Below, piece by piece: positions 1,983 through 37,824 of a DNA stretch of 38,944 nucleotides (the first letter of the stretch is position 1; each line of letters opens with the position of its first letter). The position numbers were made by a program, and so were the translations under genes. A model generated the notes under the pieces. The model was not told the DNA's origin. It searched no databases and worked only from the letters and a program-made list of their open reading frames with translations. The stretch is from Desulfocapsa sp. (GTDB taxonomy: Bacteria; Desulfobacterota; Desulfobulbia; Desulfobulbales; Desulfocapsaceae): the NCBI GenBank assembly GCA_029932055.1, contig JAOZQU010000008.1:1-38944 (forward strand). The letters run 5' to 3'.

Positions 1983-2003
1983 ATGAGATATGCTAGGGTG
2001 TTT

Positions 2004-2062
2004 AGTTCTTTACAGATTGTTCTTTTCGTTTTTTTTCAAAGAAAACAATCTGCTAAGGTACT
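2004..2062. repeat. Dispersed bulged-hairpin repeat, copy A (left stem part)
   Basis: AGTTCTTTACAGATTGTT...AACAATCTGCTAAGGTACT imperfect inverted repeat, same architecture as copies at 36769 and 37539; may also serve as the shikimate kinase terminator. Confidence 0.7.
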
Positions 2063-2320
2063 TTCACCCCCCAAGGGGGGAGCCGTCAAGCTAAGCGTTA
2101 GTCATTAGTCGTTAACAATTGATTATTAATTATTTGTGCCGTTATTTCAACAAATTGCAAAATAATACTTTTATTAATAATCAATGATCAATTGATAACG
2201 GTTAATTATTAATGTTTTGAATTCGTCATTTTGTGCCATCACTTCATTTAGTTAAAAACTATTTGCAGACAAGGCAAATCTCTTAGCTTGACGGCTATGC
2301 CCCCAAGGGGGTACTGAAAA
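2062..2320. mobile_element. MITE-like element with ~35-bp imperfect inverted-repeat ends, no ORF
   Basis: Left TTTCACCCCCCAAGGGGGGAGCCGTCAAGCTAAG (2062-2095) versus right CTTAGCTTGACGGCTATGCCCCCAAGGGGGTACTGAAAA (2282-2320), reverse complementary; inner nested AT-rich IR GTTAACAATTGATTATTAAT / ATTAATAATCAATGATCAATTGATAAC. Exact ends uncertain. Confidence 0.6.
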
Positions 2321-2323
2321 GAG

Positions 2324-2362
2324 TCCAGTGAACTTAACTGTTTTCGGTTGCACCGGGTTAGC
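2324..2362. repeat. Dispersed repeat, copy A (tail segment)
   Basis: TCCAGTGAACTTAACTGTTTTCGGTTGCACCGGGTTAGC closely matches 36848-36886 TCCAGTGAACTGAATTGTTTCTGGTTGAACCGGGTTGCG. Confidence 0.75.
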
Positions 2363-9297: not shown

Positions 9298-9386
9298 CGG
9301 AAAATAATAATTGAAATCAATATTAAGGCGTCTACAATACTAAGTGTACGATCTCGGTAAACGGGAAAAAAGCCGGGACTTTTTTT

Positions 9387-9512
9387 AGTACCTTAGAAAT
9401 CATTTTAAGTGAAGGAAAACAATAGATAAGCACCCTAATACCGGTAATGAACGGTAAGCCAGTATAAGTACCAGGGTATAAACTCCAATTTTGAAATGAT
9501 TTCCAACGTACT
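9387..9512. repeat. Dispersed bulged-hairpin repeat, copy B
   Basis: AGTACCTTAGAAATCATTT...AAATGATTTCCAACGTACT imperfect inverted repeat; interior CCCTAATACCGGTAATGAACGGTAAGCCAGTATAAGT (9433-9469) matches the reverse complement of 37593-37630. Confidence 0.65.
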
Positions 9513-9638
9513 GAAATAATTGTTTAAGGCTGTACTGTTTCTAACATTCTGTAAATAGAGAAGTATGTGTATCTCTTTGTATTTTTGTGTGTTTTGTGAA
9601 ACAATAAATTAATGCGTGAACAGTTGATTTTTACAATA

Positions 9639-15019: not shown

Positions 15020-15478
15020 ATGAAAGAATTACGAAGAAAAGATCGTGCCATCGCGGAAGAGGAAGCAATGGCTTTATTAAACAAGGCAGAATATGGAGTA
15101 CTGTCAACAGTCGATGAAAGTGGACAACCCTATGGTGTTCCTCTGAATTATTGTGTCATTGGTCACTGTTTATATTTTCATTCTACTGTTGAAGGACACA
15201 AGATTGATAACATCAGGAAAAATTTATTAGTCTCGTTTTGTGTAGTTGGAAATACCGAGCTGTTAGCTGATCAATTTGGCACAAAGTATGAAAGTGTAAT
15301 AGTTTCAGGAAAGGTTGAAGAAGTATTTGATACAAATAAACAGATTGGTCTGGAAGGACTTCTGCATAAGTACTCGGCAGAGTTTTTTGACAAAGGGATA
15401 AAATATATTGAAAGCTTAAGAGAAAAAACCAGAGTGTTCAAGATTAGCATTAATACGTTAACCGGGAAGGCGCGTTAG
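15020..15478 (+). CDS. Pyridoxamine 5'-phosphate oxidase-like FMN-binding protein (NimA-like)
   Basis: EEAMALLNKAEYGVLSTVDESGQPYGVPLNYCVIGHCLYFHSTVEGHKIDNIRKNLLVSFCVVG. ORF from 15008; ATG at 15020 likely. Confidence 0.86.
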   Translation: MKELRRKDRAIAEEEAMALLNKAEYGVLSTVDESGQPYGVPLNYCVIGHCLYFHSTVEGHKIDNIRKNLLVSFCVVGNTELLADQFGTKYESVIVSGKVEEVFDTNKQIGLEGLLHKYSAEFFDKGIKYIESLREKTRVFKISINTLTGKAR

Positions 15479-15491
15479 TAAATATTCGGCT

Positions 15492-15574
15492 AGCACCCCA
15501 TTTTCATCCGATTCGCCTTAATCACATATGACTCAATATAGTTCTTAAGGCGACTCGAACGAACTTGGGGCACT
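15492..15574. repeat. Imperfect 30-bp-arm inverted repeat (hairpin element)
   Basis: AGCACCCCATTTTCATCCGATTCGCCTTAA versus reverse complement of TTAAGGCGACTCGAACGAACTTGGGGCACT (AGTGCCCCAAGTTCGTTCGAGTCGCCTTAA). Confidence 0.65.
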
Positions 15575-15663
15575 ATCCAAATATTTACAAATGATGGGTT
15601 CTAGCACTAATTTAGCTCTAACCCTAATGCTTATGTGTTTTAAGTAGTAGACGGAAGTAATTC

Positions 15664-26459: not shown

Positions 26460-26711
26460 TGTATAGATTCCGCCTTAGGGATCACGCAAAAAAAAATTAA
26501 GATTCTGGCACCTCATATTTCTTAATTTATTTTTGAGTGAACCCTTTAAAATTGAAGCCGCTAATTTACTCATTCCTTTTCAGATTGGCGATTGAAATAT
26601 GAAATGCAAACCGGGAATTTCAATATAATCCTTCTTTTCATAGGTTAGGAAAACTGGTATTGTCCATTTCTTAATCGTATTCCAACACAATAATTACTAT
26701 CCACTGACTTC

Positions 26712-36756: not shown

Positions 36757-36768
36757 GTTTGGGCTTTT

Positions 36769-36886
36769 AGTGCCTTACAGAATATTTTCTCGGAGTCTCG
36801 TACTTCGCTTACCTGTTTTTGGGGAATATATTCTGATAAGGCACTTATCCAGTGAACTGAATTGTTTCTGGTTGAACCGGGTTGCG
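36769..36886. repeat. Dispersed bulged-hairpin repeat, copy C (stem plus tail)
   Basis: AGTGCCTTACAGAATATTTTC...GAATATATTCTGATAAGGCACT (36769-36845), then tail TCCAGTGAACTGAATTGTTTCTGGTTGAACCGGGTTGCG matching copy A. Confidence 0.75.
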
Positions 36887-37003
36887 AAAGAATCCGGTTT
36901 ATAATTTTCTTGATTAACATGTGAAAAAATGCTAAGTCTCGATGTGATTATGAATGGTCATTCATTCATTCAATATGTATTTAACAAAGGGACTGGCTAT
37001 TAG

Positions 37004-37540
37004 ATGGATCTTGATGAGGCATTTCGTAATTACGAAGATAAGATAGTAAAGCAATGGGTTGACTATACCTTATCCAGTTACAAGTCATCCACATTTTTTA
37101 AAAAAGCGCCTGATAAGTTTGCTAATCCTGTGGGAGGGAATACCCGCGAGGCTTTGGGCGAACTCTTTAAGTTGCTTGCAAAAAATGCTGATCCCATAGA
37201 ATTTGTTGCACCGCTTGATCAGATCATGCGTATTCGCTCCATTCAGGAGTTTTCCGCATCTGAAGCAGTTGCACCCATTCATGCCGTCAAACACATTACC
37301 CGAGAAATTTTAGCCAAGGATTCTGAGCGAAAGCATTTCATTGCTGATCTCTATGATTTTGAATTTGCTGTTGACCTGGCAGTCCTTGCAGCCTTTGACT
37401 TGTACATGCAATGCCGTGAGCAGTTGTACAAAGTCAGGATAAAAGAAATTAAAACCGGCACCATCATTCTTACCGACAGCAAGTGTCCGTCGAATTTGCT
37501 GAAAAAAGATAAAGATGACCCTGTAAATTTTCCAATTTAG
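37004..37540 (+). CDS. RsbRD N-terminal-domain-like protein upstream of dsrM
   Basis: DLDEAFRNYEDKIVKQWVDYTLSSYKSSTFFKKAPDKFANPVGGNTREALGELFKLLAKN...FIADLYDFEFAVDLAVLAAFDLYMQCREQLYKVRIKEIK. Confidence 0.78.
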   Translation: MDLDEAFRNYEDKIVKQWVDYTLSSYKSSTFFKKAPDKFANPVGGNTREALGELFKLLAKNADPIEFVAPLDQIMRIRSIQEFSASEAVAPIHAVKHITREILAKDSERKHFIADLYDFEFAVDLAVLAAFDLYMQCREQLYKVRIKEIKTGTIILTDSKCPSNLLKKDKDDPVNFPI

Positions 37541-37630
37541 TACCTTACAGAATGATTTCTTGTTTTTTCCAAAGAAATTATTCTGATAAGACACTTATAC
37601 CGGCTTACTTACCGTTTACCGGTGTTAGGG
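37539..37630. repeat. Dispersed bulged-hairpin repeat, copy D
   Basis: AGTACCTTACAGAATGATTTCTTG...AAAGAAATTATTCTGATAAGACACT (37539-37595), followed by ATACCGGCTTACTTACCGTTTACCGGTGTTAGGG shared (inverted) with copy B. First bases overlap the upstream TAG stop codon. Confidence 0.75.
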
Positions 37631-37667: not shown

Positions 37668-37824
37668 CGATTTGCCAACTGGAATTGTAAAAAAATCCAG
37701 CAACAAAGCAGATGAAGAGTTTTTACGATTCCATCAAGAGTAATTAACAGGTTTCTGTACCGGGGCTGGGGAAATTTCCGGGGTGGGAGCCCACACTGTT
37801 CAATTTGAAGCGAGGTTAGAAGAA

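What the first reader, a model, noticed from the sequence alone, without database searches (positions are those of the whole stretch)
36769..37630. Dispersed bulged-hairpin repeat family with covarying stems (copies A, B, C, D)
Four intergenic loci (2004-2062, 9387-9512, 36769-36845, 37539-37595) share AGT(R)CCTTA-CAGAAT... / ...ATTCTG-N-TAAGG(Y)ACT. Each predicted stem has an extra base at the same place (TTA^CAG), and arm differences tend to be compensated: AGTGCC/GGCACT in C, CAGATTGTT/AACAATCTG in A, GAAATCATTT/AAATGATTTC in B. Pairing is therefore preserved while sequence changes, which suggests selection on a hairpin (RNA element, REP-like or transposase-recognised DNA) rather than simple duplication. 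Loops differ completely.
Basis: seen in the sequence. Interest (0 to 1): 0.75.

Follow-up and report, generated by a model that had tools for sequence, protein, structure and literature searches.

The report
TTAG-targeting two-hairpin mobile repeat
The hairpins are copies of a short, gene-less mobile DNA element that has spread through the genomes of a group of sulfur bacteria by inserting at the four-letter sequence TTAG (often the stop signal of a gene); which enzyme moves it is not known.

Summary
The hairpin (H1) is the left part of a dispersed element, usually 88-98 bp: TTAG, H1 (9-bp outer stem, bulge on the 3' arm, about 14-bp inner stem, T-rich loop), CTTAT, a short G+C-rich hairpin (H2, sequence variable), TTAG. 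A covariance model gives 67 matches in this genome at E<=0.001 and members in 24 of 38 genomes of the relatives set (most of the genus; named hits are Desulfocapsa-type MAGs), plus other families of the phylum. Covariation is real: arms pair with their own partner, not with swapped ones (0/5000 permutations). It is mobile DNA: at two sites a relative has an empty site with a single TTAG; element D is absent from the rsbRD-dsrM gap of the congeners examined; seven right ends run straight into another left end, sharing one TTAG; 15 of 83 copies start exactly on a TAG stop codon. No consistent terminal inverted repeats, so a DDE-type MITE is unlikely. The anatomy fits a palindrome-associated (PATE/REP-like) element moved in trans as single-stranded DNA by a Y1/HUH transposase, but no cognate enzyme was found (none of 32 Y1 loci carries H1; no tnpB above cut-off). 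A new, TTAG-tagged variant of a known kind.

The parts
37537..37628 (+). Copy D, complete element TTAG-H1-CTTAT-H2-TTAG
   Evidence: CM match 37536-37598, 83.7 bits; tail compared with other copies; absent at this place in congeners
37539..37595 (+). H1 hairpin of copy D; bulged A at 37586
37599..37623 (+). H2 hairpin of copy D (ACCGGCTTACTTACCGTTTACCGGT)
   Evidence: sequence; DNA fold pairs CCGG arms
37538..37540 (+). TAG stop codon of the rsbRD-like ORF 37004-37540, lying inside the left TTAG of copy D
36767..36885 (+). Copy C, complete element with an H1 loop insert; right TTAG decayed to TTGC
   Evidence: CM match 36766-36845, 47.9 bits; alignment of copies
36790..36815 (+). Loop insert of copy C (TCGGAGTCTCGTACTTCGCTTACCTG), recurring in H1 and H2 loops of other copies; borders approximate
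2002..2361 (+). Copy A, whole element TTAG ... TTAG, with a nested module between H1 and its tail
   Evidence: CM match 2001-2065, 70.5 bits; tail 2324-2359 repeats the tail of copy C at 86% (D15)
2066..2323 (.). Nested inverted-repeat module in copy A (borders approximate)
   Evidence: read
9385..9513 (+). Copy B: diverged H1 arms with an inverted partial H1/H2 copy in the loop
   Evidence: (I5); not found by the model

Best explanation
Each copy is a non-autonomous mobile DNA element (usually 88-98 bp) with the plan TTAG-H1-CTTAT-H2-TTAG. Shown here: it is dispersed; its presence differs between related genomes; TTAG stands once at empty sites and at both ends of filled sites; and H1 stays folded through compensatory change. 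Inferred, not shown: a Y1/HUH single-strand transposase supplied in trans recognises the folded hairpins on one strand, cuts at TTAG at both ends and moves that strand into another TTAG exposed as single-stranded DNA; the constant CTTAT before H2 may act like the guide tetranucleotide of IS200/IS605 elements. Gene ends are frequent residences because TTAG contains a TAG stop codon, and insertion behind it leaves the protein intact.
For: Empty sites: own C382 copy against G018, 164 nt at 84% without a gap, GATGATTAC-element-TTAGAGTAAAGG versus GATGGTTAGAGTAAAGG; own C223 copy (L015) against G003, TTAG once; at the L066 site G004 and G010 hold the TTAG stop codon without the element; site D is empty in the congeners aligned. 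Seven of 51 scored right ends run straight into another left end with one shared TTAG. Right end TTAG in 42 of 51, left end TTAG in 80 of 88, though the model favours it. Fifteen of 83 left TTAGs are the exact stop codon of an ORF of at least 100 codons, against at most 3 at any other offset within 60 nt. H1 pairing kept by double changes. H2 sequence is unrelated between families while TTAG, H1 and CTTAT stay, so the right end is recognisable by shape rather than by an inverted repeat. The target is not palindromic and has a fixed orientation to the element. Literature: TnpA_REP needs its tetranucleotide and stem bulge, and IS608 cleavage sites are chosen by tetranucleotides 5' of the hairpins (PMC8266576).
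Against: No Y1 or tnpB gene is flanked by H1: 32 Y1 loci scanned, no tnpB over cut-off. The Y1 proteins of this genome are the HTH/DnaA-C type, and two of their genes are flanked by different repeats, GGGGTCAGG. G016 has 5 matches and no Y1 hit, but is only 76% complete. At two further sites (L051, L057) the relatives do not show TTAG at the junction. The empty sites come from other species, not from strains of one species. Excision, circles and cleavage were not observed.
Confidence: 0.62

Rival explanations
1. A classical MITE: terminal inverted repeats recognised by a DDE transposase acting in trans, with a 4-bp TTAG target duplication.
For: TTAG at both ends with one TTAG at the empty site equals a 4-bp duplication; H1 by itself looks like a pair of inverted repeats.
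Against: The two ends of the whole element are not inverted repeats: left TACCTTAC or TGCCTTAC, right CACCGGTG, AACCGGG, GGGGTG or CCCGCA. The target is non-palindromic and always in one orientation. H2 changes freely between families while the plan is kept.
Confidence: 0.2
2. A cis-acting RNA or transcription element at gene ends (terminator, mRNA-stabilising 3' hairpin), selected for its fold.
For: Frequent position directly at stop codons; very stable, covarying hairpin. REPs can be transcribed and may act as RNA elements (PMC3733652).
Against: Of 22 own copies scored, about 13 have the left gene reading towards the element and 9 away from it; no U tract after H1; no Rfam match; absent at the same gene end in relatives. 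At most a secondary use.
Confidence: 0.08
3. attC-like, gene-less integron cassettes: folded single-strand sites with extrahelical bases inserted by an integron integrase.
For: Hairpin with extrahelical bases; right end GTTAG resembles the GTTRRRY core (own knowledge).
Against: The R''/L''/L'/R' box layout is absent; the base before the left TTAG is T 57, A 21, G 8, C 2, not a fixed G; copies are scattered singly rather than in arrays.
Confidence: 0.03
4. No active transposition: old repeats spread by replication slippage or recombination, with covariation produced by quasi-palindrome correction.
For: Palindromes can be perfected by template switching (own knowledge), and some copies are perfect. 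Related rows can exceed shuffles without structure, as the tool warns.
Against: Clean insertions at a fixed target, tandem copies sharing the target, and the bulge kept in many copies.
Confidence: 0.05

Closest known systems
PATEs, palindrome-associated transposable elements (Haloquadratum walsbyi, PMC3119063)
   Same: Too short for a gene; no terminal inverted repeats; palindromes near both ends; short fixed target oligonucleotide at the 5' end and a conserved terminal oligonucleotide; other small repeats inserted into the palindromes
   Different: PATEs share palindromes with IS605-type transposons of the same or related genomes; none was found here. Here the terminal oligonucleotide equals the target (TTAG), and H1 directly abuts it
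REP / REPIN / BIME repeats mobilised by RAYT (TnpA_REP) (PMC3733652, PMC6006769, PMC8266576)
   Same: Tetranucleotide directly 5' of a hairpin; bulge in the stem; high copy number; intergenic; the tag often supplies a TAG stop codon (PMC3733652)
   Different: Tag TTAG rather than GTAG/GTGG or CGTC; longer stem; second hairpin followed by the tag in direct, not inverted, orientation; no Y1 gene flanked by it
IS200/IS605 family ends (IS608, ISDra2)
   Same: Two hairpins on one strand, tetranucleotide target, imperfect stems, a tetranucleotide 5' of the right hairpin
   Different: No tnpA or tnpB inside; no spacer between target and left hairpin; both cleavage tetranucleotides would be TTAG
MITEs of DDE insertion sequences
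   Same: Short, non-coding, dispersed, a 4-nt sequence repeated at both ends
   Different: No matching terminal inverted repeats; non-palindromic, oriented target
Integron attC sites
   Same: Folded single strand with extrahelical bases; right end GTTAG
   Different: No box layout, no array, no fixed G before the left TTAG

Membership tests
PATE | No terminal inverted repeats, palindromes near both ends, too short for a transposase | tested here: met
   Copies aligned with flanks; folds
PATE | Insertion 3' of a short fixed target oligonucleotide, no further target duplication | tested here: met
   Empty sites with one TTAG; TTAG tags. Indistinguishable from a 4-bp duplication because the end is also TTAG
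PATE | Palindromes shared with an IS605-type transposon | tested here: not met
   No H1 at 32 Y1 loci; no tnpB over cut-off in 38 genomes
REP | GTAG/GTGG or CGTC tag at the foot of a 20-50 nt palindrome | tested here: not met
   Tag is TTAG in 80 of 88; H1 alone is 52-59 nt
REP | Flanks a RAYT gene (REPtron) | tested here: not met
   two own RAYT genes are flanked by GGGGTCAG repeats instead
REP | High-copy, intergenic, tag often forms a TAG stop codon | tested here: met
IS200/IS605-type single-strand mobility | Strand-specific cleavage and single-strand circle intermediate | not testable with these tools
   Needs biochemistry or junction reads
DDE MITE | Terminal inverted repeats matching a transposon | tested here: not met
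   Element ends compared by eye across families
Integron attC | Paired R and L boxes with GTTRRRY core | tested here: not met
   Sequence of copies; base before the left TTAG not fixed. Judged by eye
Rfam RNA family | Score at or above a family's gathering threshold | tested here: not met

The most novel reading that the evidence does not exclude
The element belongs to a single-strand transposition system with an unrecognised enzyme: TTAG-tagged hairpin pairs spread in genomes that hold no IS200-type TnpA or TnpB and whose Y1 proteins seem to have other cognate repeats, with CTTAT before H2 as the guide for the TTAG target.
Probability: 0.25. Interest if true: 0.75.

Novelty: new variant of a known kind. 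Interest (0 to 1): 0.5.

Why it matters
It defines a TTAG-targeted, two-hairpin mobile repeat that I did not find described, with members in several families of one phylum. Many copies lie at contig ends, so it may help explain why such draft genomes are fragmented. It gives a natural set of filled and empty gene ends (including between rsbRD and dsrM), and it leaves a concrete, testable question: which enzyme moves it. If a Y1 protein does, a short system with a TTAG target would be a useful comparison to IS608 and ISDra2.

Tried and rejected
Y1_Tnp genes as carriers: 32 loci scanned by pattern, by covariance model and for perfect 10-bp hairpins; nothing matching. tnpB as carrier: no match over cut-off. 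Empty sites by comparing held loci with each other: none, probably for want of overlap; solved with joined flanks. Intrinsic terminator: no U tract after H1 on either strand. attC: no box layout. Rfam: only chance matches. Literature: no paper with Desulfocapsa plus repeat plus hairpin or Desulfocapsa plus MITE; Desulfobulbaceae plus REP gave one microscopy review; Desulfobacterota plus miniature inverted-repeat gave one integron review. Only open-licence papers were searched.

Full report
What is there. The window is contig C262 of a 3.77 Mb draft genome of 407 contigs. Searching the genome with copy C gave 59 blast pieces, and lining up the copies showed that the hairpin is only the left part of a larger unit: TTAG; H1, a long hairpin with a 9-bp outer stem, a bulged base on the 3' arm, an inner stem of about 14 bp and a T-rich loop; the constant CTTAT; H2, a short G+C-rich hairpin; and a final TTAG. 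Two H2 types are common here, CCAGTGAACTGAATTGTTTCCGGTTGAACCGGG and GCCGGCTTACCGTTCATCACCGGTG. Two H1 subfamilies exist, one with a single-base bulge and one with a 3-nt internal loop. Clean copies are 88-101 bp, mostly 88-98; copies with loop inserts or nested modules are longer. In the window, D is complete (37537-37628), C is complete with a loop insert and a decayed right end, A carries a nested inverted-repeat module between H1 and its tail (2002-2361), and B is a diverged copy that the model does not find.

Copy number and spread. A covariance model from nine clean copies gives 67 matches at E up to 0.001 in this genome, and 88 up to E 1 with many sites counted on both strands, so distinct sites are fewer than the matches; on the other hand only the best of about 2,900 candidates were scored. 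The count is therefore rough, a few dozen or more. Of the 38 genomes of the relatives set (own included) 24 have matches, most of the same genus, with 125 matches in G006, 40 in G023 and 34 in G029 of another family. An exact H2 pattern names Desulfocapsa sp. and related MAGs. In a phylum sample of 198 genomes 12 match at E up to 1e-6, with the same plan but wholly different H2, for example GCACTTATTTGCGGGC...GCCCGCATTAG.

Selection on pairing. On an alignment made without structure, 94.8% of outer-stem cells of 60 copies pair; five of nine pairs have double changes (40 A-U against 14 G-C at one pair); 0 of 500 shuffles reach this. Arms bind their own partner at -24.5 kcal/mol on average against -17.0 when swapped, 0 of 5000 permutations. 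These controls do not remove relatedness, the copies were found with a structure model, and palindrome correction by template switching could contribute. Single-strand DNA folds of five elements have z-scores from -5.5 to -9.8.

Mobility and target. With flanks joined across the element, G018 aligns without a gap to the own C382 copy: filled GATGATTAC-element-TTAGAGTAAAGGAG, empty GATGGTTAGAGTAAAGGAG. G003 gives a second site where TTAG stands once without the element. At the L066 site G004 and G010 have the TTAG stop codon without the element. At L057 the element is absent from G003 but the junction does not read TTAG, and at L051 relatives show TTAA or a gap there. Site D lacks the element in all congeners whose gene pair could be aligned. 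Seven of 51 scored right ends are followed at once by another left end, with a single TTAG between. In 15 of 83 copies the TAG of the left TTAG is the stop codon of an open frame of at least 100 codons, while no other offset within 60 nt has more than 3. Di Nocera et al. report the same habit for GTAG REPs (PMC3733652).

Mechanism. The element has two hairpins on one strand, a non-palindromic target in fixed orientation and no consistent inverted terminal repeats. That is how IS200/IS605-type (Y1, HUH) single-strand substrates look; E. coli TnpA_REP needs the tetranucleotide and the bulge, and IS608 selects its cleavage sites with a tetranucleotide 5' of each hairpin (PMC8266576). By analogy TTAG before H1 and CTTAT before H2 would be recognition or guide positions; this is inference. 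The enzyme was not found. The Y1 genes of this genome are HTH/DnaA-C types; two of them are flanked by GGGGTCAGG repeats, which fit the GGGG[AT][CG]A[CG] consensus reported for subclass 2.1 (PMC6006769). No H1 lies at any of 32 Y1 loci, and no tnpB exceeds its cut-off.

Comparison. The closest kind is the PATE of Haloquadratum (PMC3119063), including small repeats that insert into the palindromes. Its link to an IS605-type transposon was tested and not met, and the REP tag and REPtron tests were not met either. It is therefore filed as a TTAG-tagged, PATE/REP-like variant without a known mover, not as a member of either family.

Noticed in passing
window 37690-37745: A repeat of about 50-60 nt (GAGTTTTTACGATTCCATCAAG) upstream of dsrM with many near copies in same-genus genomes, above all G018 and G005.
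   Followed up: no
window 15475-15591: Another long imperfect hairpin (47-nt arms, 79% complementary) that begins with TTAG exactly at the TAG stop codon of a PNPOx-like ORF; possibly a second TTAG-headed family.
   Followed up: partly
window 2066-2323: Inverted-repeat module of about 250 nt (CCCCCAAGGGGGGAGCCGTCAAGCTAAG...CTTAGCTTGACGGC...CCCCCAAGGGGG) nested in copy A; related modules sit at the H2 position in L072, L056 and L065.
   Followed up: partly
L055, L143 and window 36790-36815: An insert of about 20-26 nt (CGGAGTC...ACGCTTACC) replaces TTG in the loops of both H1 and H2, like the small repeats that hit PATE palindromes in Haloquadratum.
   Followed up: partly
L044, L045 (G000 contigs C135 and C289): Y1 transposase genes with C-terminal HTH flanked by GGGGTCAGGTCTTG repeats; the one on C289 has an in-frame stop.
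   Followed up: partly
L079, L087, L103, L112 and other bin10051 contigs: A third internal type (TTAGTGCCTTACTCCTGAAAAGCTGTAATAAAAAAC...CAAGGCACTTATGCCGG...TTAG) uses the same ends and often sits at contig ends.
   Followed up: no
window 26477-26545: Inverted repeat with 26-nt arms, 88% complementary, between an EamA-type gene and a DUF2868 gene.
   Followed up: no
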